Source: Prevotellaceae bacterium (GTDB lineage Bacteria; Bacteroidota; Bacteroidia; Bacteroidales; Paludibacteraceae). Taken from it: DNA of 38,534 nucleotides. The translations under genes and the position numbers were made by a program. The notes under the pieces are model-generated. The model made no database searches and was not told where the DNA came from. It was given only the letters and a program-made list of their open reading frames with translations. Shown here piece by piece: positions 2-36,421 of this stretch. The stretch covers positions 1-38,534 of the forward strand of contig JAISJU010000086.1 in the NCBI GenBank assembly GCA_031261165.1, given 5' to 3'. Numbering within the stretch: position 1 is the stretch's first letter; the number at the start of each line of letters is the position of its first letter.

Positions 2-877
2 ACGGACTTCTACGAAAAATACATCGCCAAATATCCCGACGACAAAGGTACAAAAGCCACATACAAGTCTATGTTTATCTGTATGTCAAAATTTTCAGAC
101 GTAAATAAATTATACATTACCGATATTGACCTGCCGTACATAAAAGACTTTGATATTTCTATGATAGAAAGCGGGCTGAAAACCAACACCCGCGCCATCT
201 ATATGCGCAATATCCGCGCCATTATTAACGATGCCATCGACCGGAACATTTACCCGCTTGAGAACTACCCCTTTCGCCGCTTTAAAATTAAAAAAGAACA
301 AACCGAGCACAGGGCAATGGAACTGCGCGACCTCATAAAACTCCGCGACTACCCCTGTACCCCCGAACAACAAAAACCCCGCGACATCTTTATGCTCTCG
401 TTTTACCTGCGCGGACTAAATACCGGCGACCTGCTACATCTCACACCGGAAGACATAAGAGACGGATACATCATCACAAGAAGAACAAAAACCAGCGTAC
501 CCCTCAAAATCAAAATAGAGCCTGAGGCTGCCGCAATAATAGAAAAATATAAGGGCATAAACTATATACTAAATCCGTTAGATAGCCAAAAAGACTATTT
601 GGAATTTTGCCGAAACGCCAACCGCCGCCTTAAAGACATCGGCGGAACGCCCGGCAGCAAACATTCCCAACCCCTGTTTCCCTACCTTTCTATGTATTGG
701 GCGCGGCACACGTGGGCAACCATTGCTGCCGAATTGGATATTGAAGACAAAATCATATCCATCGGACTTGGGCACTCGCTAACAGACATCACCGAAACAT
801 ACATCCGCCGCAGCCAAACAAAAATAGACGATGCCAACCGAAAAATCATTGACCACCTAAACAATTTTAAATTATGA
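2..877 (+). CDS. Tyrosine recombinase / phage integrase, 5' truncated by window edge
   Basis: Frame is open upstream of the listed ATG to base 2 (TDFYEKYIAKYPDDKGTKATYKSMFICMSKF...). Catalytic-domain motifs FYLRGLNTGDL, YWARHTWATIAAE and LGHSLTDITETYIRR. Confidence 0.9.
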   Translation, partial: TDFYEKYIAKYPDDKGTKATYKSMFICMSKFSDVNKLYITDIDLPYIKDFDISMIESGLKTNTRAIYMRNIRAIINDAIDRNIYPLENYPFRRFKIKKEQTEHRAMELRDLIKLRDYPCTPEQQKPRDIFMLSFYLRGLNTGDLLHLTPEDIRDGYIITRRTKTSVPLKIKIEPEAAAIIEKYKGINYILNPLDSQKDYLEFCRNANRRLKDIGGTPGSKHSQPLFPYLSMYWARHTWATIAAELDIEDKIISIGLGHSLTDITETYIRRSQTKIDDANRKIIDHLNNFKL

Positions 878-1153: not shown

Positions 1154-3270
1154 TCACCACGCCGTTCTCTCTTTCTTAATCTTGCTCATATCTATTCTTT
1201 CCGCTTTTCGCGGCAATTCCATTTGGTAGTCAATATACAAACCAATCATAGTTGCCATTATCCTGTCATCGTGTTTGCCCGCTATCGCGCCCCAGCCGCC
1301 ATTTTTCTTACATTCGTAAGTCAATGCCTCATCTACCGTTGCTCTGTCTCGCTCGCCATAAGCCCAACTTACCTTACGCAAATTGTCGAGTATCTGATTG
1401 TAGTTTGATATTATTGCCGATTTCGTTTCCCTCAACATCGGAAATCCGTAATGTGTTGTTTGATTGTTTTTAGATTTATCGCTTGTCTTATATTTATACA
1501 GATTGTCGTAGTGGTCTTTTATTGTTTCAAAAATATATTCGTTAAAATCCACCTGATTATTGTTGCTGTCATAAGTATTAGATTCTACAACCAACAGCGC
1601 ATCGTTGTAATATTTTGCCAACTGTGCCGCTATCCATATCGTAACATACATATTCTTATGACCGTAAAACATTGCTACCACATTTGTTCCCTCGCCATAC
1701 ATTCGCCAGTATCTATCCAAAACTTTTATCACACCGTAGTCCGCACCGTCTGACTGACCTTTTTGCGGGTCGAACACCACAATGTAGCGGTTTTCTATTC
1801 TCTGCTCTTTGTCCGGTTGTTCCCAAATCTGTATCTTATTCAAAAGTTTGCGCCGCCGCGTATCTGCATCGCCTTTTTCGGCTATTTCCGCTAATTCCGC
1901 ATCAGGCACAAAGCGAATATTTTTCAATACTTCCGAGCGGCGTTTTGTATCTACAAATGCTATTTCCGGCGCACAGTCGCTCACAAACTCACCCACTTCC
2001 ACCGGCGCACAACATTCATCATATAGCCTCCGTACCAACTCGTGATTGAATGCCGGGATACCGCTATTCTGAAATGCCTCTATGTCATCGCTCGGATTTT
2101 CCTGTCTCATTATCTCTATACTCGGTGAAGTTGCCAACTCCAACCTGTACCAATTCAAATTTTCCAACGTACAGCGTTTGTTATTTTTCCAAAGATTGAT
2201 TTCATAGTCATTCATCGTTTCTATAAAATCTTCTGTACTTCCTTTCTTCTTTTTGCCGTTGTGCTGATAATATCCGCCGTCAAAAGCAATCTCTTTCGAT
2301 TCCGAATTATACCACGCCGAAAAGTGAGCCGTAAAAGCCGTTGCTCCTGCCTTTGCTTTTTGCCATTGGTCATAAAAAAAACCGCCTACGCCATTTGCCG
2401 TACTCTCGCGAATAAATGCACAAAACGCGCCGTGAGAACGTGAACTGTTTAATGTCCCCTCTATTTTTTTAGGATTGTTGTTGTCTGTGTCGGGGTAAAA
2501 TGCTTCTTCCGAAAGATGTACCAATTTAAAGTTGTGCGACCGCAAATTTTCAGGCTCACCAGCAAAACCTAAAATAATCCTGCAACCCCTTTCCGGCACA
2601 TATTGAATATTCTGCGCACTCTCAAATCCGCGCATCGTCATCTTAACGCCTTTTATCGGTGGCATCTCGTCAAGCATTGTCTTATACATCGCACGAATAT
2701 TAACAGCCGTGTCGCGCACCTGCCCGCATATCACGCTGTTCCAATTCTCTTTATGTATCGTCTGAATGTAGTTGAATAAAGCCTCAACATAAGTAGAAAA
2801 TCCCTGCTGCTTGGCTTTTAGTATCTCCGCCAATATTTCTTCACCCGCCACTAATTTTGGCAATACTACATTGGCGTGAAAATCTCTTTGGCAAAGATTA
2901 AAAATAAAAGGCTTTATTTCGCCCGTTTCTTTTATCACAAGTTTCTGGCAAGTCGCAGCAAAAAACTCAAAATCATACTTATAACGTTCTTCGCATAACT
3001 TCAACCAAAAAAATTTTATTTCTTCATTGCTGGGTTTCTTGTTAAGCCCTATAGATTTAAGAGCCTTTTTGATAGAGCCGTGTTCAAGTAGTAATTGCAC
3101 GGATTTAAGACCGCGCATAGATTTGGGAAAGTAAAATTCGTATGGTTTTTTTTCCGAAACGAGCACAACAAACCGCTCGCCGCAACAATTCAACCCGCTT
3201 ATGGGATTGTATTCTTTTTTTTTTCAGCGTTGCGCCGCGCGTTTTCCTGTATGATTTGTTCCGTAGTCAT
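1154..3270 (-). CDS. terL: Phage terminase large subunit; apparent start ATG at 3270 followed by a -1 frame discontinuity at an A10 run (3215-3224); main ORF 1154..3193
   Basis: Walker A-like AKQQGFST, Walker B-like LVHLSEEAF, nuclease-like VVFDPQKGQSDGADYGVIKVL. ORF 3193 begins with TTG; a short frame MTTEQIIQENARRNAEKKK begins at ATG 3270 overlapping the upstream stop (TAATG). Confidence 0.85.
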
Positions 3271-11528: not shown

Positions 11529-12245
11529 TTACGCTATTTCTGTAAATTTTTGGTCAAGCATCTTTGCCAAATCATATTTCTCCATTGACGTAAGCACTGT
11601 GCTTGCCGTCAAATAAGCCAGCGGCTCTATCAATCGTTCATCAATATCCACCGTGCCTCCTGTTTCCGTTAGGGCTTTTACATTTTTAATGTACAATGCC
11701 GTTTCAATCTCATAAATATGGTCGGTGAGCGAAGTCGAACCGTGGTCGGTGAGCGAATCCGAACCGTGGTCGGTGAGCGAATCTGTGCGCCACATTGAAT
11801 AATAAAACAACACGTCTTTGGGTTTGGTGAGCGAAGTCGAATCCACTATTACCCTCCTTACGCACACCGGACGCTTCCAAGTCCCACGCGTATATTCATT
11901 TGCCTGTCGCGAGTTTATGGCGGGTGTTTCCGGCTGCAATACCAAGCAGGCACTATCCCACCCACGCATCTTAAAAGAAGTCAATACAAGAAAATCATCG
12001 GGCAATACAACGTAACCTGTTCCCTGCGGCTTGTTTTGCACGTGTGGCTGACCGGCAAAAGAATAACTCTTAAAAAAATGACGAGGCAAAACATTTACAG
12101 CCCTGCGCCACGCGGCGGGATATAGGTTTTCGACATACAAGTCTATTTTCACCATATCAGCCCCAATGAGTGTGGCACCGTCTATTACGTTGTCAGCCTC
12201 ATTAAGTATCGTCAAGACGCGCTGTATAAAATCCTGCTTTGTCAT
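11529..12245 (-). CDS. Head-tail adaptor/connector candidate
   Basis: Position between capsid and tail genes; helical N-terminus with AAWRRAVNVLPRHFF; carries three tandem 24-bp insertions (DSLTDHGSDSLTDHGSTSLTDH). Confidence 0.45.
   Translation of the reverse strand: MTKQDFIQRVLTILNEADNVIDGATLIGADMVKIDLYVENLYPAAWRRAVNVLPRHFFKSYSFAGQPHVQNKPQGTGYVVLPDDFLVLTSFKMRGWDSACLVLQPETPAINSRQANEYTRGTWKRPVCVRRVIVDSTSLTKPKDVLFYYSMWRTDSLTDHGSDSLTDHGSTSLTDHIYEIETALYIKNVKALTETGGTVDIDERLIEPLAYLTASTVLTSMEKYDLAKMLDQKFTEIA
11720..11842 (+). repeat. Three tandem 24-bp Family A units plus one isolated copy in adaptor gene
   Basis: GGTCGGTGAGCGAAGTCGAACCGT / GGTCGGTGAGCGAATCCGAACCGT / GGTCGGTGAGCGAATCTG; TTGGTGAGCGAAGTCGAATCC. 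Confidence 0.9.
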
Positions 12246-12912: not shown

Positions 12913-12935
12913 TGTGTCTTGTGTCTTGTGTCTCA

Positions 12936-15601: not shown

Positions 15602-15636
15602 GACGTTCAGACATAAGACTAAAAAGTCCATATTTG

Positions 15637-15660
15637 GTTGCTGAGCGAAGTCGAAGCAGT
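15637..15660 (+). repeat. Family A copy between the two rightward genes
   Basis: GGTTGCTGAGCGAAGTCGAAGCA. Confidence 0.85.
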
Positions 15661-15701
15661 GTCTAAAATCGCATATCGCATATCCTAATATCTCAATATC
15701 T

Positions 15702-16223
15702 ATGAAACCAATCTTTATCCTAATCTTCATTCTCGTTTTCATTTTCTTTGAAAACGAACTCGGATATACCGGCATATTCCCGCTGTGGAAACACCTCGCT
15801 TTCCATTTTCAGCACAGCAATTTCCTGCACCTGCTTATCAATAGCGTCTGCTTTTGCTTTGTTTTCAAAAGTCTGCGGGTTTTTGTTAGGTCTCGCACCA
15901 TCATTCTTGTGTCCCTCACAGCAGCCACCGCAGCCTCATTCTTCTGCTGCTACGATATACCGGTAGTCGGCGCAAGCGCAATGATTTACGCAATGATTGG
16001 TATGCTTATCATTATCTTTTGGCGCAAAGGATATTTTCGGCAAAAAGCATTTTTTAAAAACTTTGCCCTTTGGCTATGCTGCATAACCCTGTCGCTAACC
16101 ATTTCTTTTTTCAAAACCAACAGCGCAACAATGCTGCACCTCATCTCCCTGTTCAGCGGCGGCATTATCTATTTCCTGCTCTGCCTGCTATTCACAAAGA
16201 AGAAAAATAGAATATCCCAATAG
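15702..16223 (+). CDS. Rhomboid-family intramembrane serine protease candidate
   Basis: Multi-TM; HFQHSNFLHLLINSVCF (HxxxxHLLxN), VVGASAMIYAMIGM (GxS active-site region), MLHLISLFSGGIIYFLL (catalytic His in last TM). Confidence 0.7.
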   Translation: MKPIFILIFILVFIFFENELGYTGIFPLWKHLAFHFQHSNFLHLLINSVCFCFVFKSLRVFVRSRTIILVSLTAATAASFFCCYDIPVVGASAMIYAMIGMLIIIFWRKGYFRQKAFFKNFALWLCCITLSLTISFFKTNSATMLHLISLFSGGIIYFLLCLLFTKKKNRISQ

Positions 16224-16267: not shown

Positions 16268-16308
16268 AAAAAACACCCGCTAAATTTTTGGTTTAGCGGG
16301 TGTTTTCT
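16268..16308 (-). terminator. Rho-independent terminator of the giant gene, also between convergent genes
   Basis: Perfect 15-bp stem AAAACACCCGCTAAA (16270-16284) / TTTAGCGGGTGTTTT (16292-16306), 7-nt loop, followed by a T run on the minus strand. Confidence 0.9.
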
Positions 16309-19300
16309 CATTCCAATTTCTCAAATTCTTTCAATAATCGTTCAGCCTCTCGTTGCAAAGCACCTTCTCCGTTTATATTATTTCTCTTAAAAATATCTTT
16401 TATTTTTTCCTTTGTTTGCGTTAATGATAATTTATCATTGGCGCGAGCATTCCTTATATTTTCTTCTACCGTTTTTATTTTCTCATATTCTGTTATCAAT
16501 TCCATTTTCTTATAACCCTTTGAATTTTTGTCGTCTTTCATTGAATTGTATAAATTCTCATCTCCTTTTTTAAGGTTTCTTATCTGTGTTTTCAAATAAT
16601 CTGATTTTTTCTCTAAATCTATCCAAGTCATTTGTTTTGCATCAAACTCCTTCGGTTGTTTGATGAACACGTTGGCAAATTGCATCTGACTTACATCTAC
16701 TTGTTTGTCCGGATTGAATATCTGTATGCCGAGCGTTACCATATCGGTTACAAATTTTCCTGTCCCCGCGCTATATCCCTCTATTATTGTCTGTATCTTG
16801 CTCGGATTCCAATCATAAATCCACGCTACATCGTCAGCACTGTTATCGGCTCTCAATTTGCTCTTGTTATTAATAGACCCGCCGCCTGCCTGCCACAAGA
16901 CATCAGACAGCCATTGATAGCCTTCCGGCACATTATGTTTCCCTAATGTCCGCTCGGCTTGCGTGTCTTCCTGTTTTTTTAGGTATTCGGTATTATATGC
17001 CGTGCTGCCCGTGAATTTAATATTCATAAAACAGTCCATAATTGGCTGTATTGAGGTTGGCATTATAGCGTGAGCCGTCAGTTTCAACCCTTTTTCGCTG
17101 AATGGTATTACTCGCCCTGTCCGTTCGTCTATTTGTATCAAATTGAGCCAAAATGTTAGTTGCTCAGGCAAAATATTTCCGGCAAAATAATTCGCGCCGT
17201 CAAGCAATGAGGCACTGATGGCTTTTTTGCCTCTCAATGCAAGTCCCGCCTGCGTTCCCAAACCCCAAAAGGCGCGTAATCCCTGAGGCAAAGGTATTTT
17301 TGCTTTTCCGATGCAAATATTCTGCATCAACTCCCATTCGCTAAAAGCGCGGTTGTCATCATCGCCCACAGGTGTGAATAATGCCTGCAATATTCCGCCT
17401 GCAAAGAAACCACCCATTATGCCAACCATCGCACGCCGAACGCGCTTGTCTTTACACATACGAATTATCTTATTAGTTCCCTGAACAGACGCGTTGAAAA
17501 ACGCAAACAGCATATTGAAAGCCTTTGCAAGATTTCCTTTTCTGTCAAAATTGGTCGTTACCTCTTTGGCGTGTATTGCCGCCTCGCGCCGCGTGTATTT
17601 CGGTGTGCCGTCATTGTTCATCTGCTCGCGGCTCGTTACATACTCGGCAAAGCGAGTGGTCAGTTCCGATACTTCCGTCAGCATACCAAAAGTATGTTTA
17701 AGTGCTACGAGCGGATTGCCGTTGCTCGACAATGCCTCTTTTATCTTGTTTGGCTCTATCGATTGCCGCATATCCTCGCGCAACTGTTTCACGTCTTTTA
17801 AAAAACTCCAACCGGTAGCCGCTCCGTCTTCAAAAAATTCCTGCAATAATTGCCCGTATTTCCCTTCCGTAAAACCGCCCTCACCCTTATATTGTTCACC
17901 GGCGGAATATTGCCAAACCGCACCCTGCACCAAACCAATATTTTTCATAAATTGAGCCTGATAACCAACACCAAACTCAGACAGGTTACTGATACTCGCA
18001 ATTCCAAAGTCGCGCACAAAGTTTGCTGCCGCAAAACTCGGATTATACTGTGTCATCATACCGCTCATAAATCGCGTTCCACTACGCAGCAATTCCTCGC
18101 CTTTAATAATAATGTCATTGTCGGTTTGTCTTTCTACCGTAAATTTTCGGTTGAGAACATTTGCCACGCTCTCGCCTGCATATACCGCCTTACCCTCTGC
18201 ATCTGTTCCAAATACAATTACTACTTCCTTTCCGTTTTCCGTAATGCTCACCTCGTGTTGCTTTTGCTCGGCGCGAGTGCGCTCGGCAGGTCTCATTGCC
18301 TCGTGTCCGCTGTATAGCACATTTAAACTTTCACGCAAACGTATTTCTTCATCTACTAAACGTTTTATCGCTGCCTGAAACAGCGGATTAATAGTTTGCG
18401 CTTTGCCCTGATTCCGCAATATCGCCAAGCGTTGATTCTCTCTCTTCACTGTTGCCTCGCGCTCTGCTGTAATCTTCTGCAATGCCTCGCGGGTTTCTTT
18501 GTCTTCTTTTATAGATGTATTACTCGGCTCTTTGGTCGTGCGCTCGTAAATTATTTTCCCCGATAAATCTGCGCCGTCCGCATCGGTATAACGCTTTGGA
18601 TTGCCGTTTTCGTCATACGTCTTTACATAATACACATTTTTAAATGTAAAAAAATTGTTTTGGCGAGCAAAATCTTGATTTTTGCGGGCAAATTCCAAAA
18701 ATACGCGCTTTGTCTCATTTTTCAAACAAGACATCACCGTACTTTCACCAATACTCTCCATATACGCCAGCGGGTCGCCCGCAAGCGTAGTCCTGCCTTT
18801 CGCTTTTACCAACGCCGCATTGAAAGGATTATCGGGCGTATCGCCTTTTTCCGATACATAAAAACCTTTGTCATCTATCAAATCGCGCTCGCGCCAACCG
18901 CGCTGCGGAACGTAGTATTCGCGTGTCCCGTCTGTATATTTGTCATAAGTGGCTTGGTCTATTATGCCGTACTTCAACTGCATATCCAATGCCCACCTGT
19001 TGGCTGACCGTACTTCGTCCCAAATCTTTTGTATTTTTTTATCGCCCAAAATGCGTTCAAATTCACTGATAAATGTTTCCGGCTCAACGGCATTCCCATT
19101 CTCGTCTTTCACATTGTTTCTAAATCCCTCCGCGCCACGCTCTACCAAACCCAACTTGTCTGCTTCAATAATATCTTTTGCCTGTAAATACAGACTTATT
19201 TTATCGTAATTTCCTACCGGCTTATTATTTATTACCTCACCCAAAGCATTTTCTACGCGCCATTTATATGCCGGCATCTTGTTTAATTTCTTGCTTTCTA

Positions 19301-22300
19301 CAACGCCGCGTAATAACTTTTGCAGTGGCTTGATATGTTTTTGTTTATATTCTTCAATCAAATAAGTAGCGCGGCTTGTGGAAGTAATAATATCATCATA
19401 AGCATTGGTTTCGCTCGTGAGTTTCGCGCCTTTTTCTACCATTAATTTTATGTATTTTTCCAGCGGATAACAGCGGTCAATAAATGCCTTATTAAATTTC
19501 AAACGCTTTTTCATTTCTTTATCCACGTCAGCAAGCGTTTGGCGCGTTTCATTATTAAATTTATTAATTTGTTCCACAATATCTATCAATGACATATTTG
19601 GCGTTATCTTCGGCGGCTTGGGTATGGCTGGCTCAACAAATGAAAGTTCCGTGTCTTTTTCCCATTTATCTATTTGTTTGGCAAATTCATTAATCGGCTG
19701 TCCTGTGTATTTCGGCTTTGGTGCCGCAGGCGCACTCGCCGCCATAAACCGCAGCCCTGTGTCCCTATTGTCCCCCCTGTCCCCCAAATTATCATACAGA
19801 AATATCTGGTCTTCACGCGCCACATCTTCTGTTTCTTCCGCCAAACTCGCGCGGCGTTCTTCGGTGGTCATATTCATACGAGCGGAAACATTACGCGCCT
19901 CTACTTCGCCCGATGTTTTATTGTAACTATCCTGCGGAAAATACTTTTGTTTCTGTCTTGCGCGGTAAAAATCTTCCATAATATCAAACATCTCGTTGCG
20001 TGATATTTCCCCTGTTTTTGCTTTTTGCGCAATGCTAATTATTTCGGGCGTTTTAAACCGTTTCGTTGGTAGAGAGATAAACCAATCCACAAATTTTTTA
20101 CGCGAATTTGATTTATCGTGTTCTGCGTATAAATCTGCGTATTCCTGTATATGCGCAGGCAAAGGCTCTCTAATCCCCTCAAAATATTTTGGATTACTCC
20201 CGTGAGCAAAACCCTCATCTTCCTGTATGTAGTGCTGTATTTCGTGTGCTATAATACCCCTTATTTCATTTAAGTTTTTTTCGGTAATTCCGGCAAAGTC
20301 GCCATCTTCCGTAAACTTTGTTGTAAAATTTACTTCAATCGTGTTTTTATTCCTGTCAAACCGACCGTTATACGATGGCGGTAAAAAAAGCGGGCGCGGC
20401 ATTATGTTTATTGTGGTTTCTGACAACTTAGGAAAAGCCTTTAATAATTCCGTATCTAAAATTATATCGCGTAAGTTACCGCTGTATTCCCCATTACTGT
20501 CTATTTTACTTGCATCAATGTTTATCGGCTCTGTTTCATACCGCCACTTCCCATCAGCCCCACGTTCCCAGCCGGTAGCCAACTTTATTTTTTTTGCAAT
20601 TTCTTTCTCATTTATTTGCAGGATTGAAATTAAACGCTTATCTTTGTGGTCAGAAACAACCTTATTGTTGTCAAGCGAGTTTGGTAATCGTGTAGCATCA
20701 ATGAGGTTTTTCTTTTCTATCAGCGTTAATTCGTGGTCATAATAATAACTGTCGCCCTTTTTCCCAACAACCATTTTTACGGTATAATCTTCCCCGCCTA
20801 TTTTCATACCCGATACATAATACCGATAACTGTCATATTTTCCGTTTTCTTTTGTATTTGGCTCTTCTGTTATAAAAATAGAAGTTTCAATAATTTGTGG
20901 TATTGCAGCAATAGATTTCAAGTGGGCATCGTCGCGCTCTCCGTGAGAAGTTACCTCATTTGCTCCCACGCGAGAAACTCTTATTGTTTCGCCTGTGTCT
21001 TTATTAGTGTAATCATTGCGCAAATGTTCTTTGATATACTCTTTTGCCGACTTGGGGTTTAGTTCATACTTCCCTTTGTATTCCTCCCCTGTTATCTCTA
21101 TCGGCTCGCTCGCTTTCAACTTTTCAATCCGCGCTTTCTTTTCGTCAAAAGCCGTTTCCATATCCCGCGCCACCGCCAAATTATCCAGCCGTGTAGTCGC
21201 CTCTTCCGCACGGTCTAAATTTGCCGCGCCCTGTTTGCCAATAAACTGAAACTGAGTACCATTTTTAGTTTCAGCCTGCGCCGCCCCACCGTCATTGCGG
21301 GCTTGGTTGCTGAGCGAAGTCGAAGTATGACCCGCAATCCCCTTATACTCCGCAAACGGCTTAACTCGCCGCCCATCAGCCTTAGCCCAGTCCCTAAATG
21401 TTTCCACATCAGTTTCGGTAATATTCCCTAACCCTTTCCAACCCTTCTCATAATTCGACAAATAAGCCGCCCGCGCCTCTTCCAAACTGTCAAACCCAAA
21501 CATCACCTTATGCTCATCAAAAGTCCCTTTTGTCCCATCAGTCCCTGCTTTATTTTGGTCAATCACAAAAACTTTCCCACTCAAAGGATTATCCCCCAAG
21601 AAAACATCAATATGGTCGCCGTCCCGCGATTCCGTATTGCCAAAATAACCATAAGTATTGTGCATTTTACTTTCCCAAGCCTTACCGTTTTCATCAACGC
21701 CGCGCCGCACACTCCCTTTCGGCTGCTCAATAAAAATATCAAAGCCCTGAATTTTCACGTGTCCCTTTCGGTAATTTCCCGCCTCTTTCTGCGCCTCTGT
21801 CGGGTTAGTATCCGTTTCGGCTTCCGCCGCCGCAATCTTATCCTGCAAATCCTTTAATTCTGTGTCATTGCGGGCTTGGTTGCTGAGCGCAGTCGAAGTA
21901 TGGTTGCTGAGCGCAGTCGAAGTATGACCCGCAACCCCCTGTTTAATTTCTTTCCCGGAGAGCAAATCCGCCGCCGCCCCATTCACAAACTCATCAAGCG
22001 ACAAGTCCTGTATCTGATTACTGTTAAGGTTGCGAATACCCGCATATTTTCCGATAAACTTCCAAACATCATTCAACCACGCCTTAATCTGCGCCCATTT
22101 CGTTAAAGATAAACTGAGGGGTCTTTGCAATAACGCCTCACCCCTGTCGCCTATCGCCGTTGCCAATGCCTCGCCGATTTTCTCGCGCTCACTTATTTTA
22201 GCGTAATAAGGATTGTCGGCTAAATTTTTGTAATAGTCGGTATCTTTTATAAGTTCCGCGCCGCGCTCGTACAATTCAGAGTTGTTTTGCTCAATAAAAT

Positions 22301-25300
22301 CTACCCACAAATGCCCAAACTCGTGTATCGGCGTGTTGGCGTTCAACAAATTTTTGTCAATCCACATATCTTTGCCGTCCCGCGTAACAAAGCCGTAAAT
22401 TTCGCCTTTCTTGGTGGCAAGCATACGGATATTACTTATTATTTCAATATTATCTTCATTTCTTACTACAACTTGTTTTCCTTTTGGTATTCCGTAGCCC
22501 TCGTGATTAACAATGTATGCGCTTGCATCGGGATATTTTTCATTTATATATTGTTCTATTATATTTCCAAAACGCTGATAATTGCTTTTTGTAACATTTG
22601 GCTTTTTGTAATTTTCAAATTCTTGTGCTGTTTCTTTTATTTTTTCTTTAATGTACGGTATTAAATTTTCATCTGTTGTTAAATCAATAATTTGTGCATC
22701 GTCTTTTAATTTAAACCTTACAATAGAATTAGCACCGGTTGAATAATATTCGCGCATTTTAGAATTATTAGCAGGATAAGCATAAATTCCTTTTCCTGCC
22801 TCACCGTTTGCTTTTGTAAAACCGTATTCTACATCTTCTCTTGCGCCTCTTTCAAATAAATTTTTTACAAAAAACCGAAAATATTCCTCATTTATTTTTG
22901 GATTTTCAAAATTTTGTATTACCTTTGCAGCACGGTTGTAAAGGTTTCTCACCTCAGCGGAATTGTACCGCTGTTGAGAAAACCATACAGCCATTTTTTG
23001 TTTGTCGGCATATTCTGTCAATCCCTCGTCAATCCAATTTGCAATATGCGCGTTTGAAGTTCTGTAATGAATGCTGCGTATATCATTAATTTCAATATTT
23101 CCCTTTTTCCTATTTGCCTCAATAGCAACAACAAAGTTTTTTCCCTTATGCTGTATTTCTGTCAGCACAACATAACTTCCAATGTGCGTTGCACTGCGAA
23201 ATACTGCCAAAGGCTGTTGTATTGCCTGTGGCAAATTCTCTATTTCCAACAAATCAAAGGGGTGGTTTTCCTGCATTGATTTGTCGGATAAGCGGCTCGC
23301 TGCTAACTCGACAGGCAAATTCGGTAAGCCCGCAGCCTGCAATATTGCGCCCGCATTACCAAGTTTATAAATATGTCCTGCGGGTAATTTGCTGACAATC
23401 TGCTGTTGCAATTCCGCATTAAACGCCGCATTTACCTTACTCAACTCCGCCATCTCCGCCATTGCCAAATAACCACCCTCGCCGAGTTTCTTTTCAGCAT
23501 AAGCCCTGTCGGTATGCAATGTGCCTTTAAACAGCCCTGTTTGCCGCAACAATCCCACAAGCCGCTCAAACGCTTTATCACTTATTTTTTGCAGGCGGGC
23601 TTGCGGATTGTTGTGAAACAAAGTCCCCTGCGCATTAAAAGCATCACGCGCCGCCCGTACCTGCGCCGTCTTACCCGCCCGCAAATCCGATACCTGCTTT
23701 TGCAAACCCTTTATCTCCGCTTTCAGCGTAGCAGTAGCGGCACTCTGATTACCCCGCGACACATCGGCGGAAACATCAAACAAACTCATTGTAGGATTAG
23801 TAAAGAGTTTTTGCTGTCGTTCTTCCGCAAACACCCTGTTAATGTGTTCCACTTCCTGCTGCCGCTCTTTTATGCCATTCTCCGCAGAACTTATCTGTTT
23901 ATCTATCTCGGCGGCTCGCAACTGTCCCGCTTCATTGGCGGATTTAGGCGTTACACCGTTTATCTGAAATTTCGGCGCGGTATTTTCGTTTCCACCGTCA
24001 TTCTCATTCCGGTTGCTGAGCGAAGTCCGGTTGCTGAGCGAAGTCGAAGCATCTACCAAATCCCACTCATTATTAAAATCATATCCCGCAGGGCGATAAA
24101 AATTCTCATTCACAAAACGCAACTCTTCATCTGTTAGAACTTCGCCCATCGCCATTTTATCTTCGAGCGTAGCAGTCATTATTTCTTCAGGCGTCAATCC
24201 ATATCGCTCTGCCAACTCCGCCTGCCGATTTTCAAATTCAGCATTAAGCCGTGCCGTTTCTTCTGCCAAACTTGCTTTATCCGCAGCCGATTTCTTCTCT
24301 GCATTCTTGCGGAACTCCATAATAACCGGCATTAATTCCTCTTTCAGTTTGGCATTTTCATTGATTAGTTGTTTAGCCTCATTTTCCTCTTTCGCAGATA
24401 ATTTATTTTTACGAGATTTTATTTTCAACTCCCGTAACTTTTGGTTGTTTTTGTTGATTTTTTCCGTTTTTTCTTGCACACTTTCAGAATTTGCCGTATC
24501 TTTGCCGTCAGAAACAGCATCGGGGGCGACAGCCCTGCCCCCATAATTGCTATCAGGGGTTAATGGGGTGTTAGCAGATGCTGTTTTTTCTTCTACTGTT
24601 TTGCTGTTGTCGAATGCAGTAAGTACCCAATTTTTACCATCTTCCGAACGAGCAACCACAACCCTGTATCCATCTTTATCTATTCTTGCGTTGTTATTAT
24701 TTTGAATAGTAACAATTCCATTTTCAACAACATCTTCAATTACTTCTGCCGCTTTTTCTAAACTTTCAAAATCGTTCTGCCTGTTAATATGCTTGTCTAT
24801 AATTTTCTGTAATCCCTGTTTTTCATTACCCCATATTAAATCTATATCGCCTATCTCGTTTCTGTGAAATACACCCAACAGGTCGCCGTTTTTTATTTTT
24901 TCCAAAAATGTAAACGCCTCTTTCGCTTTCCCCTTAAATTGGTCATAAATATTCCCAAACGCGCCTTTACCTATCGGCTGTGGCTCGTTATTGTCCTTAA
25001 AGTCCCTATTATCCTTAATTCTATCAACTCCCGTAAAAACCTGCCCCAGCCCATTCAACTTCAACACATCAATAAGCACATCGGCAGGCACGCGCTCGCC
25101 AAACATCGGCACGCCACCCCGCGCCTCATCGCGCACAGAGTTATTATACTCCTCAAAAATCTTCCGAAGTTTAGCCGTTTCCCGCTTGTCGTCAATCGCC
25201 AAAGCCATTGCCAAATTAATGGCTTGGTCGCTGTGTGCGCCGTTCAGTATATCTTGCTGCCTGCCCTCTATCTCCACGTGCACACCACTCGCATTAGCCG

Positions 25301-28300
25301 CCGTTACTATCTCTATCGCCTCGCTCAAATAATCCGTAATATCAAAATTTAAAGTACCGTCATTGCGGGCTTGACCCGCAACCCCCTGTGTGCCGCTGTC
25401 ATTGCGGGTTTGACCCGCAATCCCCCCAAAACTCCTGTTTTCAATTATCTGCGGAATGGCTTTAAAAATAACAGCCTTTTGCGTTTCATTAAATTTCATT
25501 ATTTGCGCAATGTCGGCGGCTTTACCCTGAAATGCCGCGCCCAGCATCGCCGTTTCGAGGAAGTCGCGCCCCGTTCCGGTCATTGTACCGTTTTCATTCA
25601 CAAATTGCGCAATATCGGTATCCTGTATCACGCCCTCGTTTCTCAAGAAAGACAATATTTCAGCCGTCCGTTTCGGGTCATTGTATATTTCGCTCAGATT
25701 ATCAATGTCATTCAGATAACCGGCAATATTATTCACCGTTACGGTATTTAATGCCTTACTCTGCGCTTTTGCCTTTTCGGTGGTTGATTGCGATTTTTTC
25801 TCATCGGCATTGAATTTTTTGAAATTCGCCGTTGTCAATTCAATGGGGCTGTCCGGCACGAATACAATGCGCGGGTGCTCAAACTGCCCCACCTGTTCCG
25901 GCGTAAAGCCGTAGTTACGCCCATATTTGCCAATATATTCGTTATACGCGCCGTCTGTGTCCTGCTGCGCGGCTATCTGTCCCGCCATTGTCCTGCCGTT
26001 ACCGCTTACTGTTACGCCTGTTGCACCATCTACCACAATGCCTATTGCGCCCCTGTCAAAATGCTGCGCCATACCGATAGTTATTTCCTGCGCCGCTTTG
26101 TCGTTCTGATAATCGCGGTCATTCACATTCTCTCCGCGCTCGTTGGTGGGGAAACCCGCCGTGCTTGCAAAATTATTGTTCACATCGTGGCTCGGCGTAA
26201 ACGCACCCTGTTCGGTCAATACATACTTGCCCGGTATTACCTCGCCGTTGGCAAGCCTCATTTCATCGGCATTGCCCTCTATTTTCGGCGCATCATTCCA
26301 ACGCGCCACAATACCGGCAAAGTCATCACCCGTTACACTCCCCTGCTCACCAGCCGCACGGCGTTCATCGCGCTGCTGTATGCGGGTTTGCATAGCCGCC
26401 TCACTATCAGCGCGTTGCTGCTTCACAAGTGCGGAATTTTCTATATAATTGTCATAAACGGCTTTGTTTTCCCGCAAACGGGCTATCTCTTTTATGCCAC
26501 TTACCGTTTTAGGCTGTTTGCTCAAAGCAGTTATTTTATTGAAAATATCTCTACTTTGTTCTTTGGCAATATCCAAAATATCCGATTCTTTCAAACCCTC
26601 ATACTCAGCATATCGTAGTTGTTGCTCAGGCGACATCTGTTTCTCATCAGCATTACCTCGCCTGTCGGTGGGCAAACCCTCATAAAACGCCTGCCGTTCC
26701 TTATCAACATCACCGTCATTATCAACACCGCCATCATTGCGGGCTTGGTTACTGAGCGGAGCCGAAGTATGACCCGCAACCCCCTGTGCCCCACTGTCAT
26801 TGCGGGCTTGGTTGCTGAGCGAAGTCGAAGTATGACCCGCAACCCCCTCTTGGTTAGAAGCATCAGGAAACAAATTTATAATTTCCTCTTCCGAAGCCTT
26901 CCACGGAACAACATCGCCATTATTCGTGATTATATCCGTATTATAAGTCCCATCAGCATTCCTGCTTTTCACCCTTATTCTCCCATCAGCATTCTCAAAC
27001 TCCTGTCCCGACAAGTCAACATTTGGCGTGTCTTGTGTCTTGGCTCTTGGCTCTTGCATCTCATTAATATACTGCGCTATCTCCACATTCTCAGCACCAA
27101 TCTGCTCATCTATCAACGCATTTTCCGCCAAAACAGCATCATATAAACTCGTCTCATTGTCTATTGCCCTTATCTTCTCGCGAGCAACCGGCATTACCCG
27201 CGGCTGTCCCGTCTCCTCGTCTATGCTGCCGTCACGGTAATACACAATCTCGTCGCTTCCCTGCAAGTCCGGTATAACGCCACCGCTTTCTTCACGCGAT
27301 GTGCGCAAACCGCTCACTATCTCTACCGGATTATCAACGCCCTCTACCTGCGCCGTAACGATTGTGCCTGTCGTCTTGTTTGTGCGGGATTGTAGCCGCT
27401 CGGCAGTCTGCTCACGCCGAGCGTTAATATTCTGTTCACGCCGCGCCGCTGTTTGCTTTGCCAAATTCGCAAACTGCATATAATTCAACACAGACTGCTT
27501 CTGCTCAGCAGACAAAGCCGCATCGGACATCACCGTCAAAGCATACTCTTTCTGCTGCTCAACCGGCAAATCTATTATTTGAGGATTAAACGTAAATTGA
27601 CCGTTCAAAGAGCGTTGCATATTGTCAAACGCCTGCTTGCTCGTGATTTGCATACTGGCAATATTCTCCGGCGACAAGTCGAAGTCTTGCGGTAATTGTG
27701 GATTTACTGCTTGGGATATTTGGGCTTCGCGCTCGGCAGATTGTTGATTTCTTAAATTATGGTAGCCAATTGCCGTACCAATGCCCTGACCGCCAACGCT
27801 CACGGGACCTGCGCCTGCAACTCCATAAACAAACGCATCGCGGGTGCCATCCCAAATACTGCCGTCTTTTTTTACGCCACTAATTTTGTCTATTATGTTT
27901 TCACCCGTATTCGATATGATTTCTTCGCCACCTTCGCCAGCCATTCCTAAGACCGTATTCACTGCCGCCTGACCAAATAACTTGGCGGCAGCGCTTTTTC
28001 CCACCTTGCCAATTATGTTTTTTACTAATTTGGTATCTAATACACCACCCGCTCTTTCAGATAAATATTCTATCAATCCGGTAAATCCCGAATTAAGCAA
28101 CATAGCCTCTTCGCTCATTTCCGGATTGTTTTGTTTTAGTTGCTCATATTTTTGATTGGCAACATCAATATATATTAGCGGCGCGGTGTAGGGGTTCATC
28201 GCCATTAATGTGCTCGGCGCACTTTCCAAACCTTTATTTAATGCCTGATTGACAGCATCAAAGTGTCTTCCCTCTTGCCATAAGTCTGAATAATCTTTCG

Positions 28301-28874
28301 GAACTGTATTGCCGTTTTCATCTATTTTTGTGCCATAACGTCTATTGGCGTGCGCAGAAATCCTGTCGGAAAGGTCTTTGCCTTTGTTATATATCTCTCT
28401 TGCGCTTGCTTCTAAATTTTTTCGTTGCTCTTCTAATGGCGGAGCACCGGTAGACATATCATAAGCCATATTGGTGCCTCCACCCATAGCCAAAGGTTTA
28501 TAAACACTGGAATTGGCGGCTTTCATAAGGAAATTTCCCAAACTGTTTCCCGTTCTCACAACGCCGCTGGCTAAACTCTCAGCACCTTCAATAACTCTTT
28601 CGCCAACAGCCTTTTGTAATACGCCCGGCTTAAAGGCATAATCCCAAAATGTAGGGTCGTCAAAATAACCCTTTTCTTTATCAAAACCCAATTTTTGATT
28701 ATATGTTGTTTCATCACCTAAATCGAAATTATGCGCAGTAGCAACATTAAATAGTTGCTTGCGCCTTGCCGGGTCTTGAATATTTTTTTCAAATGTCGCA
28801 TAATCGCCAACGTCAAAATTATTTGCCGTCAAAACGTCGTGCATTCTTTTTGCGTTTTCTTTATTTAGTCCCAT
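16308..28874 (-). CDS. Giant 4188-aa phage polyvalent protein (ParB/DdrB-like, MuF/PBECR-like, ART-like, metallopeptidase, inorganic-pyrophosphatase-like and LPD-type regions)
   Basis: Motifs: GIVVDGATGVTVSGNGRTMAGQ (DdrB/ParB-like); TEIQHKGKNFVVAIEANRKKGNIEINDIRSIHYR (MuF-C/PBECR-like); GKGIYAYPANNSKMREYY (ART-like); TPIHEFGHLWVDF and IIAHEIQHYIQEDEG (HExxH); ESRDGDHIDVFLGDNPLSGKVFVIDQ (InPase-PolyVal-like); TRFMSGMMTQYNPSFAAANFVRDFGIAS (LPD38-like). Confidence 0.85.
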   Translation of the reverse strand: MGLNKENAKRMHDVLTANNFDVGDYATFEKNIQDPARRKQLFNVATAHNFDLGDETTYNQKLGFDKEKGYFDDPTFWDYAFKPGVLQKAVGERVIEGAESLASGVVRTGNSLGNFLMKAANSSVYKPLAMGGGTNMAYDMSTGAPPLEEQRKNLEASAREIYNKGKDLSDRISAHANRRYGTKIDENGNTVPKDYSDLWQEGRHFDAVNQALNKGLESAPSTLMAMNPYTAPLIYIDVANQKYEQLKQNNPEMSEEAMLLNSGFTGLIEYLSERAGGVLDTKLVKNIIGKVGKSAAAKLFGQAAVNTVLGMAGEGGEEIISNTGENIIDKISGVKKDGSIWDGTRDAFVYGVAGAGPVSVGGQGIGTAIGYHNLRNQQSAEREAQISQAVNPQLPQDFDLSPENIASMQITSKQAFDNMQRSLNGQFTFNPQIIDLPVEQQKEYALTVMSDAALSAEQKQSVLNYMQFANLAKQTAARREQNINARREQTAERLQSRTNKTTGTIVTAQVEGVDNPVEIVSGLRTSREESGGVIPDLQGSDEIVYYRDGSIDEETGQPRVMPVAREKIRAIDNETSLYDAVLAENALIDEQIGAENVEIAQYINEMQEPRAKTQDTPNVDLSGQEFENADGRIRVKSRNADGTYNTDIITNNGDVVPWKASEEEIINLFPDASNQEGVAGHTSTSLSNQARNDSGAQGVAGHTSAPLSNQARNDGGVDNDGDVDKERQAFYEGLPTDRRGNADEKQMSPEQQLRYAEYEGLKESDILDIAKEQSRDIFNKITALSKQPKTVSGIKEIARLRENKAVYDNYIENSALVKQQRADSEAAMQTRIQQRDERRAAGEQGSVTGDDFAGIVARWNDAPKIEGNADEMRLANGEVIPGKYVLTEQGAFTPSHDVNNNFASTAGFPTNERGENVNDRDYQNDKAAQEITIGMAQHFDRGAIGIVVDGATGVTVSGNGRTMAGQIAAQQDTDGAYNEYIGKYGRNYGFTPEQVGQFEHPRIVFVPDSPIELTTANFKKFNADEKKSQSTTEKAKAQSKALNTVTVNNIAGYLNDIDNLSEIYNDPKRTAEILSFLRNEGVIQDTDIAQFVNENGTMTGTGRDFLETAMLGAAFQGKAADIAQIMKFNETQKAVIFKAIPQIIENRSFGGIAGQTRNDSGTQGVAGQARNDGTLNFDITDYLSEAIEIVTAANASGVHVEIEGRQQDILNGAHSDQAINLAMALAIDDKRETAKLRKIFEEYNNSVRDEARGGVPMFGERVPADVLIDVLKLNGLGQVFTGVDRIKDNRDFKDNNEPQPIGKGAFGNIYDQFKGKAKEAFTFLEKIKNGDLLGVFHRNEIGDIDLIWGNEKQGLQKIIDKHINRQNDFESLEKAAEVIEDVVENGIVTIQNNNNARIDKDGYRVVVARSEDGKNWVLTAFDNSKTVEEKTASANTPLTPDSNYGGRAVAPDAVSDGKDTANSESVQEKTEKINKNNQKLRELKIKSRKNKLSAKEENEAKQLINENAKLKEELMPVIMEFRKNAEKKSAADKASLAEETARLNAEFENRQAELAERYGLTPEEIMTATLEDKMAMGEVLTDEELRFVNENFYRPAGYDFNNEWDLVDASTSLSNRTSLSNRNENDGGNENTAPKFQINGVTPKSANEAGQLRAAEIDKQISSAENGIKERQQEVEHINRVFAEERQQKLFTNPTMSLFDVSADVSRGNQSAATATLKAEIKGLQKQVSDLRAGKTAQVRAARDAFNAQGTLFHNNPQARLQKISDKAFERLVGLLRQTGLFKGTLHTDRAYAEKKLGEGGYLAMAEMAELSKVNAAFNAELQQQIVSKLPAGHIYKLGNAGAILQAAGLPNLPVELAASRLSDKSMQENHPFDLLEIENLPQAIQQPLAVFRSATHIGSYVVLTEIQHKGKNFVVAIEANRKKGNIEINDIRSIHYRTSNAHIANWIDEGLTEYADKQKMAVWFSQQRYNSAEVRNLYNRAAKVIQNFENPKINEEYFRFFVKNLFERGAREDVEYGFTKANGEAGKGIYAYPANNSKMREYYSTGANSIVRFKLKDDAQIIDLTTDENLIPYIKEKIKETAQEFENYKKPNVTKSNYQRFGNIIEQYINEKYPDASAYIVNHEGYGIPKGKQVVVRNEDNIEIISNIRMLATKKGEIYGFVTRDGKDMWIDKNLLNANTPIHEFGHLWVDFIEQNNSELYERGAELIKDTDYYKNLADNPYYAKISEREKIGEALATAIGDRGEALLQRPLSLSLTKWAQIKAWLNDVWKFIGKYAGIRNLNSNQIQDLSLDEFVNGAAADLLSGKEIKQGVAGHTSTALSNHTSTALSNQARNDTELKDLQDKIAAAEAETDTNPTEAQKEAGNYRKGHVKIQGFDIFIEQPKGSVRRGVDENGKAWESKMHNTYGYFGNTESRDGDHIDVFLGDNPLSGKVFVIDQNKAGTDGTKGTFDEHKVMFGFDSLEEARAAYLSNYEKGWKGLGNITETDVETFRDWAKADGRRVKPFAEYKGIAGHTSTSLSNQARNDGGAAQAETKNGTQFQFIGKQGAANLDRAEEATTRLDNLAVARDMETAFDEKKARIEKLKASEPIEITGEEYKGKYELNPKSAKEYIKEHLRNDYTNKDTGETIRVSRVGANEVTSHGERDDAHLKSIAAIPQIIETSIFITEEPNTKENGKYDSYRYYVSGMKIGGEDYTVKMVVGKKGDSYYYDHELTLIEKKNLIDATRLPNSLDNNKVVSDHKDKRLISILQINEKEIAKKIKLATGWERGADGKWRYETEPINIDASKIDSNGEYSGNLRDIILDTELLKAFPKLSETTINIMPRPLFLPPSYNGRFDRNKNTIEVNFTTKFTEDGDFAGITEKNLNEIRGIIAHEIQHYIQEDEGFAHGSNPKYFEGIREPLPAHIQEYADLYAEHDKSNSRKKFVDWFISLPTKRFKTPEIISIAQKAKTGEISRNEMFDIMEDFYRARQKQKYFPQDSYNKTSGEVEARNVSARMNMTTEERRASLAEETEDVAREDQIFLYDNLGDRGDNRDTGLRFMAASAPAAPKPKYTGQPINEFAKQIDKWEKDTELSFVEPAIPKPPKITPNMSLIDIVEQINKFNNETRQTLADVDKEMKKRLKFNKAFIDRCYPLEKYIKLMVEKGAKLTSETNAYDDIITSTSRATYLIEEYKQKHIKPLQKLLRGVVESKKLNKMPAYKWRVENALGEVINNKPVGNYDKISLYLQAKDIIEADKLGLVERGAEGFRNNVKDENGNAVEPETFISEFERILGDKKIQKIWDEVRSANRWALDMQLKYGIIDQATYDKYTDGTREYYVPQRGWRERDLIDDKGFYVSEKGDTPDNPFNAALVKAKGRTTLAGDPLAYMESIGESTVMSCLKNETKRVFLEFARKNQDFARQNNFFTFKNVYYVKTYDENGNPKRYTDADGADLSGKIIYERTTKEPSNTSIKEDKETREALQKITAEREATVKRENQRLAILRNQGKAQTINPLFQAAIKRLVDEEIRLRESLNVLYSGHEAMRPAERTRAEQKQHEVSITENGKEVVIVFGTDAEGKAVYAGESVANVLNRKFTVERQTDNDIIIKGEELLRSGTRFMSGMMTQYNPSFAAANFVRDFGIASISNLSEFGVGYQAQFMKNIGLVQGAVWQYSAGEQYKGEGGFTEGKYGQLLQEFFEDGAATGWSFLKDVKQLREDMRQSIEPNKIKEALSSNGNPLVALKHTFGMLTEVSELTTRFAEYVTSREQMNNDGTPKYTRREAAIHAKEVTTNFDRKGNLAKAFNMLFAFFNASVQGTNKIIRMCKDKRVRRAMVGIMGGFFAGGILQALFTPVGDDDNRAFSEWELMQNICIGKAKIPLPQGLRAFWGLGTQAGLALRGKKAISASLLDGANYFAGNILPEQLTFWLNLIQIDERTGRVIPFSEKGLKLTAHAIMPTSIQPIMDCFMNIKFTGSTAYNTEYLKKQEDTQAERTLGKHNVPEGYQWLSDVLWQAGGGSINNKSKLRADNSADDVAWIYDWNPSKIQTIIEGYSAGTGKFVTDMVTLGIQIFNPDKQVDVSQMQFANVFIKQPKEFDAKQMTWIDLEKKSDYLKTQIRNLKKGDENLYNSMKDDKNSKGYKKMELITEYEKIKTVEENIRNARANDKLSLTQTKEKIKDIFKRNNINGEGALQREAERLLKEFEKLE
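21291..21344 (+). repeat. 54-bp composite element in giant gene
   Basis: GTCATTGCGGGCTTG-GTTGCTGAGCGAAGTCGAAGTATG-ACCCGCAATCCCCTT. Confidence 0.95.
21864..21941 (+). repeat. 78-bp composite element with two tandem 24-bp inner units
   Basis: GTCATTGCGGGCTTG-(GTTGCTGAGCGCAGTCGAAGTATG)x2-ACCCGCAACCCCCTG. Confidence 0.95.
24009..24054 (+). repeat. Family A, 18-bp partial plus 24-bp unit, in giant gene
   Basis: CGGTTGCTGAGCGAAGTC followed by CGGTTGCTGAGCGAAGTCGAAGCA. Confidence 0.9.
25359..25427 (+). repeat. Two 30-bp outer elements lacking the inner 24-bp unit (empty form)
   Basis: GTCATTGCGGGCTTGACCCGCAACCCCCTG (25359-25388) and GTCATTGCGGGTTTGACCCGCAATCCCCCC (25398-25427). Confidence 0.95.
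26733..26849 (+). repeat. Two 54-bp composite elements in giant gene
   Basis: 26733-26786 and 26796-26849, both with inner 24-bp unit. Confidence 0.95.
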
Positions 28875-30001: not shown

Positions 30002-30058
30002 AATATTTTTCAGTTTATTGTCTTGTGTCTAAAAGTCTATTGTCTTGTGTCTAACAGT

Positions 30059-31682: not shown

Positions 31683-31743
31683 AATATGATATTTTTAAAT
31701 TTTAATTCTAAAAGTCTTGTGTCTAAAAGTCTTGTGTCTAATA

Positions 31744-34540: not shown

Positions 34541-36421
34541 CTACTGCCCGGCTTGTACTTCCTGCTCGCGCTTATTAATGGCATCAAGTAATTGCTCTTT
34601 GAATGGGAAATTACCCGCATCTATTATTGTCCGAAGGTCTAATATATTCTGCGTATCGTATTGCTTGAGTTGTAACAGCATATCATTCACCATAAGGCGG
34701 TAGGCGGGCGTGTCCGTATTTTCGGCAATGGATATTTCAGTGTCTATATCTTTCACGCGCTGCGGGTCGTATTTCAAAGACCTGTTTTTATTTCGGTCGT
34801 AAATGTATCGTTCGCTGTCATAACACTGCTGCATCATCTGTACCGTCTGCTTGGCGCAGCGTATCAAGTAACTGTTAAAGCATTCAAACAGCGACTTTAA
34901 ACTTGTCGCCGCATTTTGCGTTTGCTGCGCATACATCATTGCCGGAGTTCCTGCCGTTGGTGCCGCGCCCTGTAAGGAACCAAATATTCCGCTCACGCGC
35001 TCGGCGGCGTTGAATAAAGTGCCTGTTGCTGTTAGCGGACTGAAAGCCTGCTGTATTGTGCTGATGTGCTGCGGTGCGGGTACGCCGTCTTTCGCCTTGT
35101 AGATAATCATACCATTGTAAGAGGTATATTCTTCCGCAATCTCCTCAATGGATTGTTTATCCGAAATCGCTTCTTGCGGAAAAAACAAAAGGTCTTTCGC
35201 GCTGTATCTCGTCAAAAGTTTGACAGTGGTGAATAACTGATTTATCTCTTTTTGAACGTCTATCAAATCCTTAACAAAGGAAAATACCCTGCCCTCAACG
35301 AATTTATGCGCCTCAAATAAAATGGTCGGCTCGCCGTGCCAGTACGGATTGACAAGTTCCGTCAATACATCTCCGGCGGGCGTAAGAGCGTAATAAACCC
35401 AAACCTCATCATTTGCCCATTCCCAATCAAGCAATAGCATATTGTCCGGCAATACGCCCATAGCCGATTGCTCTCTTGCCCGCAACGCATTAATAGCCTC
35501 AAAATCGGCTTCACTGCCGTTCTCGTAGAAATCATAAGTGCCGTGCAGATAATCCTGCACCCAAAAACCCTCGCGGGTTTCACGCGCCCAAACGTGAATA
35601 ACGCGGCATTGCTGCGCACTGTTCATATCCGGCGTGAAAAAATCTTTTTCTACACTCTGGTCGGTAAAGGTTTCTATCATCTGGAACACGCGTTCTTCCT
35701 GATTGGCATATAAACTGCGCAGATAGTTCGCGCGTTTTTTGTCCCCACCGGCAAATACCTGTAATATCTTACCAATAGTCGTATCGGTAATATAACCAAC
35801 CATTCCGCAGTCTGTATAGCGCGGGTCGGTCATCGTATTGTCAATGAACAGTGAAAATGGACTGACATAATCACAAAAAATATCCTTGCTGCCGTTGCGA
35901 GTTCCAAAAATTCGATTGCTTGCCGTCATACCCAAAACAGCCAATGTCTCCAACTCGTGCTGAACTAATTTCTTAATTTCGTTTTTACGGTAATTGGTAT
36001 GTAGCGTTGCTGTTAATACTTCGCTCTCATACTGAGCATCTTCTTTCTGCGCTATGCAGACGGGCAGGGTGATGTTGGATATATACACGCCTACGGCGGT
36101 GCGAATAGCATTGCGAATAATATTGAATTGACCGGCATTCAAACCGTACTCTGTTCTTAAATAATGCCGTTCCGATACGTTTCTTTTTGTTTTTTGGTCA
36201 AAAACAGTATCCAAATTTTGGTCGCCATACACAAACTCAATATTCCGCCGAGCATCTTCGCGCCATTTGGCTAAGGACTGCCAGCAATTATAAGCAGACA
36301 TCAAGACCGTTTGCCTGCGCTTTTGACCGTCATAGTCTTCATTCGCCGCCGCTTTCTTTGATTTTTGCTTGCCAATGCTGTTTTTTTGATATGTCTGTAA
36401 TATCCTCTTTTGATTGACCAT
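34541..36421 (-). CDS. Portal protein
   Basis: 626 aa; N-terminal WREDARRNIEFVYGDQ, RHYLRTEYGLNAGQFNIIRNAIRTAVGVYISN, later VQKEINQLFTTVKLLTRYSAKDLLFFPQEAI; typical portal layout. Confidence 0.75.
   Translation of the reverse strand: MVNQKRILQTYQKNSIGKQKSKKAAANEDYDGQKRRQTVLMSAYNCWQSLAKWREDARRNIEFVYGDQNLDTVFDQKTKRNVSERHYLRTEYGLNAGQFNIIRNAIRTAVGVYISNITLPVCIAQKEDAQYESEVLTATLHTNYRKNEIKKLVQHELETLAVLGMTASNRIFGTRNGSKDIFCDYVSPFSLFIDNTMTDPRYTDCGMVGYITDTTIGKILQVFAGGDKKRANYLRSLYANQEERVFQMIETFTDQSVEKDFFTPDMNSAQQCRVIHVWARETREGFWVQDYLHGTYDFYENGSEADFEAINALRAREQSAMGVLPDNMLLLDWEWANDEVWVYYALTPAGDVLTELVNPYWHGEPTILFEAHKFVEGRVFSFVKDLIDVQKEINQLFTTVKLLTRYSAKDLLFFPQEAISDKQSIEEIAEEYTSYNGMIIYKAKDGVPAPQHISTIQQAFSPLTATGTLFNAAERVSGIFGSLQGAAPTAGTPAMMYAQQTQNAATSLKSLFECFNSYLIRCAKQTVQMMQQCYDSERYIYDRNKNRSLKYDPQRVKDIDTEISIAENTDTPAYRLMVNDMLLQLKQYDTQNILDLRTIIDAGNFPFKEQLLDAINKREQEVQAGQ

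What the first reader, a model, noticed from the sequence alone, without database searches (positions are those of the whole stretch)
16308..28874. 4188-aa polyvalent protein with several enzymatic modules in one phage polypeptide
One ORF of 12.6 kb combines a DdrB/ParB-like region, a MuF-C/PBECR-like nuclease region, an ART-like region, two HExxH sites (HEFGH, HEIQH), an InPase-PolyVal-like region and a C-terminal LPD38-like membrane/helical region. This fits the polyvalent proteins described by Iyer, Aravind and colleagues, thought to be delivered with DNA and to act against host defences. Its position among virion genes suggests it is packaged and injected, possibly self-processed by the metallopeptidase modules.
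Basis: partly seen in the sequence, partly recalled or inferred. Interest (0 to 1): 0.7.

Follow-up and report, generated by a model that had tools for sequence, protein, structure and literature searches.

The report
REP-studded giant phage polyvalent protein
A prophage in a gut-type Bacteroidales bacterium encodes one giant protein that strings together many attack and counter-defence enzymes of a known kind, and short palindromic repeats shared with its host genome have been inserted into it in frame, at a loop and at joints between enzyme modules.

Summary
In detail: one uninterrupted minus-strand ORF, window 28874 to 16308, 4188 aa. Pfam recovers PBECR1, MuF_C, InPase, LPD3 and LPD38 above cut-off. 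DdrB-ParB is weak in the window but above cut-off in aligned homologues. Both HExxH sites lie in conserved metallopeptidase modules with a conserved third Glu. The claimed ART module is not recovered. It is a Bacteroidales member of the polyvalent proteins of Iyer et al. 2017, in a P22-portal-type virion cassette of an integrase-bearing prophage. Delivery and self-processing remain inferred.

New here: palindromic REP elements of the host genome (27 nt, with 24-nt units nested in the loop) sit at five places in the ORF. All are in the same strand and frame and encode GVAG(HTSTSLSN)nQARND. One is an exact 25-residue gap in three homologues. Two sit on module joints, zincin|InPase and the end of InPase. 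The nested form has 39 exact copies in this genome and none in 149 related genomes, and it also sits in frame in host rlmN. The inner unit occurs 21 times in the window, all on the late-gene strand, including in the adaptor gene with an empty site in homologues. This resembles Rickettsia RPEs, but in phage virion genes.

The parts
16308..28874 (-). Polyvalent protein ORF, 4188 aa (about 465 kDa)
   Evidence: the A of its ATG is the last base of the upstream gene's stop codon (28874-30001)
27045..28874 (-). N-terminal region aa 1-610, shared with relative G030 (29% identity over aa 6-604)
25050..26528 (-). DdrB-ParB module aa 783-1275 (Pfam stretch 880-995; conserved GNGR at 958)
24597..24869 (-). 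PBECR1 predicted RNase aa 1336-1426
22992..23285 (-). MuF_C (PBECR-type) aa 1864-1961
21945..22433 (-). Metallopeptidase module 1 (HEFGH at aa 2184, third Glu in EALATAIGD), aa 2148-2310
21336..21851 (-). InPase module aa 2342-2513 (acidic motif DGDHIDVF at 2418)
20754..21053 (-). LPD3 aa 2608-2707
19782..20588 (-). Metallopeptidase module 2 (HEIQH at aa 2877, GEVEAR at 2989), aa 2763-3031; weak LPD23 hit at its N-terminal edge
16566..19631 (-). C-terminal region aa 3082-4103 including LPD38 (aa 3855-4064)
26734..26847 (-). REP site S1: two 51-nt compound elements, in frame (aa 677-714)
25360..25425 (-). REP site S2: two 27-nt elements, in frame; exact 25-aa gap in homologues
24011..24048 (-). 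REP site S3: inner units only, in frame
21865..21939 (-). REP site S4: 75-nt element with two inner units, at the metallopeptidase 1 | InPase joint
21292..21342 (-). REP site S5: 51-nt element at the C-terminal edge of InPase
34541..36421 (-). P22-type portal protein
   Evidence: 1.1e-24
1154..3193 (-). Large terminase
11529..12245 (-). SU10-type adaptor (weak Pfam match) with in-frame inner REP units (TDSLTDHGSDSLTDHGSTSLTDH), absent in homologues
2..877 (+). Tyrosine integrase, cut by the contig end

Best explanation
A temperate phage of a Bacteroidales bacterium encodes a phage-type polyvalent protein: a DdrB-ParB NTPase/nuclease-like module, two PBECR-type RNase modules, two zincin-like metallopeptidases, an InPase and LPD modules in one chain. 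It is encoded with the virion genes. The most likely mechanism is that it is packaged in the head, ejected with the DNA, and at some stage cut by its own metallopeptidases into units that act on host RNA, nucleotides or defences. Separately, palindromic REP elements of the host genome have been inserted in frame at five sites. They persist there because the element lengths (27 nt plus n x 24 nt) keep the frame, the frame used has no stop and encodes a hydrophilic Gly/Ser/Thr/Asn peptide, and at least three of the five sites are in a loop or at a module joint that tolerates insertion. Shown: domain content, conserved active-site residues, gene context, in-frame insertions with empty sites. Inferred: packaging, ejection, processing, targets, and tolerance as the reason.
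For: Pfam domains; DdrB-ParB above cut-off in homologues. HExxH plus third Glu conserved over 32 and 40 aligned sequences. The metallopeptidase-2 region aligns with zincins, weakly (anthrax lethal factor catalytic domain Z 3.6, jannalysin Z 3.5). Portal, terminase, adaptor, head-type genes and relatives' synteny; integrase. Module order is reshuffled among relatives. REP: five sites, one strand, one frame; exact 25-aa gap in G031/L057, L092, L066 and a 23-aa gap in L139; adaptor empty site in four homologues. Compound repeat: 39 exact copies in this genome, none in 149 relatives. In-frame copies in host rlmN between RlmN_N and Radical_SAM, and in a BadF-type activase.
Against: No virion proteomics or expression data. 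N4 vRNAP carries an MPTase domain yet is packaged whole, so processing is not assured (PMC5512222). The ART claim is not supported. S1 and S3 lie in poorly aligned regions, so joint or loop placement is only shown for S2, S4 and S5; the permutation test for placement is borderline (p about 0.05).
Confidence: 0.72

Rival explanations
1. The REP peptides are functional: they are hot spots that let the phage shuffle modules by recombination, or they serve as flexible, protease-accessible joints between modules.
For: S4 and S5 bracket the InPase module, and homology break-points pile up there (52 and 48 HSP ends). InPase and metallopeptidase 1 occur in the opposite order in G030 and G109. The inner unit is about 11-fold over-represented on the phage contig (12 of 87 exact-pattern copies, expected 1.1, P 2.5e-9).
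Against: Relatives shuffle the same modules without any such repeat (none found in five relatives). S2 is inside a conserved block, not at a joint. Insertion tolerance explains joint placement just as well.
Confidence: 0.15
2. The giant ORF is a decaying prophage remnant, and the repeats accumulated because nothing selects against them.
For: The contig carries an integrase; the repeats are dense; no induction data.
Against: A 12.6-kb frame stays open, all REP insertions in it keep frame and strand, catalytic residues are conserved, and the neighbouring head genes are intact and syntenic.
Confidence: 0.06
3. The modules act as effectors on the host and are never processed; the metallopeptidases are themselves effectors against host proteins.
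For: Iyer et al. list this alternative; N4 vRNAP and the ArdC/TraC1 proteins travel uncleaved.
Against: P1 DdrB, with a C-terminal MPTase, is processed before packaging.
Confidence: 0.3

Closest known systems
Phage-type polyvalent proteins (Iyer et al. 2017, PMC5512222), e.g. P1 DdrB
   Same: Many disparate modules in one chain; the same domain families (PBECR1, MuF_C, InPase, LPD3, LPD38, DdrB-ParB, zincin MPTase); encoded among virion genes
   Different: A combination and order not seen in the relatives fetched here; decorated by in-frame REP elements, which I did not find described for this class in the sources held
Prophage giants of related Bacteroidales genomes (G030 3451 aa, G031 4721 aa, G109 3377 aa, G097 3105 aa)
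   Same: Shared modules (InPase 54-76% identity, C-terminal region 26-33%), and shared head and portal genes in part
   Different: Module order differs; G030 and G109 carry ART-PolyVal and Kinase-PolyVal, not detected here; none carries the repeats
In-frame palindromic repeats: Rickettsia RPE and CGTC/GTAG-tagged REPs (PMC3733652)
   Same: Short palindromes, many copies per genome, in frame inside functional genes, often as dimers
   Different: Here in phage virion genes; the 24-nt unit nests inside the loop of the 27-nt palindrome and can tandem or nest again; the compound form was found in one genome of 150

Membership tests
Phage-type polyvalent proteins | Two or more domains of disparate activity from the polyvalent set in one polypeptide | tested here: met
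   five families above cut-off, plus DdrB-ParB via homologues and two metallopeptidase modules
Phage-type polyvalent proteins | Encoded next to virion/late genes | tested here: met
Phage-type polyvalent proteins | Packaged and injected with the DNA | not testable with these tools
   no virion data; inferred in the source paper too
Zincin-like MPTase of polyvalent proteins | HExxH helix plus a downstream Glu ligand, conserved across homologues | tested here: met
   H216, E217, E267 invariant, H220 at least 90%; HE-QH and GE-E-R at least 90%
Zincin-like MPTase of polyvalent proteins | Zincin fold | tested here: inconclusive
   metallopeptidase 2 aligns weakly with zincins (Z 3.3-3.6); no clear match for metallopeptidase 1
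ART-PolyVal (PF18760) | Profile match to the ART family | tested here: inconclusive
   no match in this protein, although the same library finds ART-PolyVal in G030 and G109; the local model is low-confidence
REP / in-frame RPE elements | Short palindrome, many interspersed copies in the genome | tested here: met
   138 exact 22-mers and 31 compound elements in the own genome; hairpin -13.7 kcal/mol
REP / in-frame RPE elements | Inserted in frame in a gene whose homologues lack it | tested here: met
   S2; adaptor
REP / in-frame RPE elements | Association with a REP-associated tyrosine transposase | tested here: inconclusive
   four Y1_Tnp matches in the genome, linkage to the REPs not examined

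The most novel reading that the evidence does not exclude
A host-genome REP family has colonised a prophage's late operon, always on the coding strand and mostly in one reading frame, and its frame-preserving 27 + n x 24 nt units now serve as standard linkers that help assemble and reshuffle the modules of an injected polyvalent protein.
Probability: 0.13. Interest if true: 0.7.

Novelty: new variant of a known kind. Interest (0 to 1): 0.45.

Why it matters
Polyvalent proteins are a known but mostly untested phage weapon; this one adds a new module set with two conserved metallopeptidases that make the self-processing model testable. The in-frame repeats show how a phage protein can acquire new linkers from repeats shared with its host genome. 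Because the nested repeat was found in a single genome among 150, it also ties a metagenome-assembled prophage contig to its host bin.

Tried and rejected
Full-length and C-terminal queries against viral contigs gave no or one relative, so module queries were used. The ART-like region was searched alone in phages and 199 genomes without a convincing hit. NCBIfam and PADLOC gave nothing. No solved structure by sequence for the metallopeptidase or C-terminal regions (the single APOC-I hit at E 0.049 is taken as chance). Foldseek had no match at E <= 0.001 for either model. An assembly artefact as the cause of the repeats was considered and rejected: the copies differ in sequence, are shorter than ordinary short reads (read length not known here), and have exact empty sites in homologues. 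The compound repeat is not in any IMG/VR contig; the plain 22-mer is in eight, one copy each. ORF 15446-15775 carries an inner unit in another frame and is probably not a gene. No paper on REPs in frame in phage genes was found, which is weak evidence of novelty because many papers are not held.

Full report
The ORF. The window is the whole of contig C171 (38,534 bases) of a 3.04-Mb, 225-contig draft genome. The ORF at 16308-28874 is real, on the minus strand, 4188 codons from an ATG whose A is the last base of the upstream gene's stop codon. The contig also encodes a P22-type portal, a large terminase, a weak SU10-type adaptor, an M15 peptidase, an integrase cut by the contig end and a Cro/C1-type HTH. 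It is therefore a prophage, or a temperate phage contig. The portal, the 172-, 129-, 197- and 867-aa genes upstream of the ORF, and the 261- and 476-aa genes downstream of it, have homologues in phage loci of relatives, notably G030 (portal 52%, 172-aa gene 61%).

Modules. Pfam finds PBECR1, MuF_C, InPase, LPD3 and LPD38 above cut-off, DdrB-ParB and LPD23 below. The DdrB-ParB block aligns over about 490 residues with G031 (32%), and that homologue and L066 pass the Pfam cut-off. The InPase module keeps an acidic DGDHIDVF motif. Two HExxH modules have many phage homologues: 23 IMG/VR loci for the first, 79 for the second. In alignments of 32 and 40 rows the HExxH residues and one downstream Glu are conserved. 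AlphaFold2 gave a moderate model of aa 2530-3031 (mean pLDDT 75) and a poor one of aa 1969-2312 (57). These Z values are below what the tool's notes treat as convincing.

The ART claim is not supported: Pfam detects ART-PolyVal in G030 and G109 but not here, the region has no convincing homologue, and the model there is mostly below pLDDT 50. It is not excluded.

Relatives. Giants of 3105 to 4721 aa occur in related Bacteroidales genomes. The modules overlap but the order does not: InPase precedes metallopeptidase 1 in G030 and G109 and follows it here. Named relatives are Prevotella/Prevotellaceae, Paludibacteraceae and Bacteroidales MAGs. Iyer et al. 2017 describe exactly this kind of shuffled, virion-linked protein and propose MPTase processing, with P1 DdrB processed and N4 vRNAP not.

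In-frame repeats. The coding strand contains GGGGTTGCGGGTCA-AGCCCGCAATGAC, a 27-nt palindrome (hairpin -13.7 kcal/mol), in whose loop a 24-nt unit TACTTCGACTTCGCTCAGCAACCA can be nested once or twice; in host copies a further unit nests inside it. In the ORF all lengths are multiples of three. The five sites in the ORF (S1-S5) use one strand and one frame, GVAG(HTSTSLSN)nQARND. The compound element has three stop-free frames; only one is used.

Empty sites. At S2 the homologues G031 (= L057), L092 and L066 have an exact 25-residue gap and L139 a 23-residue gap; two near-identical loci, L104 and L105, align residues there instead. In the adaptor gene, the stretch TDSLTDHGSDSLTDHGSTSLTDH is mostly or wholly missing in L029, L063, L030 and L054. 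At S4 and S5, homology to the metallopeptidase and InPase modules ends (52 and 48 HSP ends). A permutation test over all five sites is borderline (p = 0.055 for ends, 0.044 for depth), so placement at joints is suggestive only. S1 and S3 are in poorly aligned sequence.

Origin. The own genome has 138 exact copies of the 22-mer core, 39 of the compound pattern, and 87 of the inner-unit pattern, 12 of them on this contig against 1.1 expected. The compound pattern is absent from 149 related genomes; the core is present in four of 60 relatives at 1 to 18 copies. In host genes it is in frame between RlmN_N and Radical_SAM of rlmN, and in a BadF-type activase. So it is a host-genome family shared with the prophage; which way it moved is inferred. 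On the phage contig the inner unit (up to 3 substitutions) occurs 21 times, all on the late-gene strand, and 14 of 16 copies in accepted genes share one frame (the ORF 15446-15775 was left out by judgement as probably not a gene).

Known parallel. CGTC- and GTAG-tagged REPs and Rickettsia RPEs are known to sit in frame in cellular genes, often as dimers (PMC3733652). That paper does not mention phages. I found no report of REPs in frame in phage virion genes among held papers.

Verdict. The finding is a good observation of a known kind of protein. The unexpected part is the frame-keeping colonisation of a phage's late genes, including this giant, by a nested repeat shared with its host.

Noticed in passing
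window 3270-4094, 11529-12245, 12315-12827: Three other phage genes carry the inner REP unit, mostly in the same frame (STSLSN/STSLSD/SLTDH peptides): a membrane-anchored protein, the adaptor and a 170-aa gene.
   Followed up: yes
G000:C117 (locus L050, ORF 2495-3769): Host rlmN carries two tandem compound REPs in frame between its RlmN_N and Radical_SAM domains.
   Followed up: partly
G000:C51 (locus L043, ORF 1977-5999): A BadF-type activase carries two REP-derived stretches in frame, one in each orientation.
   Followed up: partly
G000:C17 (locus L037, 33-1604, minus strand): A trpC/trpF-like ORF holds another repeat-like peptide (LTPNPSPQERG), suggesting a second in-frame repeat family; recognised from memory, not searched.
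   Followed up: no
window 12262-12305, 12886-12933, 30011-30059, 31700-31739, 34390-34493, 37224-37285: Intergenic arrays of AAAAGTCTTGTGTCT / TCTTGGCTCTTGCG units, mostly between late genes; function unknown.
   Followed up: no
window 20754-21053 (LPD3): The modelled LPD3 part has its best structural matches among BECR-type toxins (6cp9_A, RelBE chains; Z 3.5-5.3), hinting that LPD3 may be a further RNase-like fold; weak.
   Followed up: partly
window 8013-8768: A glycosyltransferase with a DXD motif (Gly_transf_sug) lies among the virion genes.
   Followed up: no
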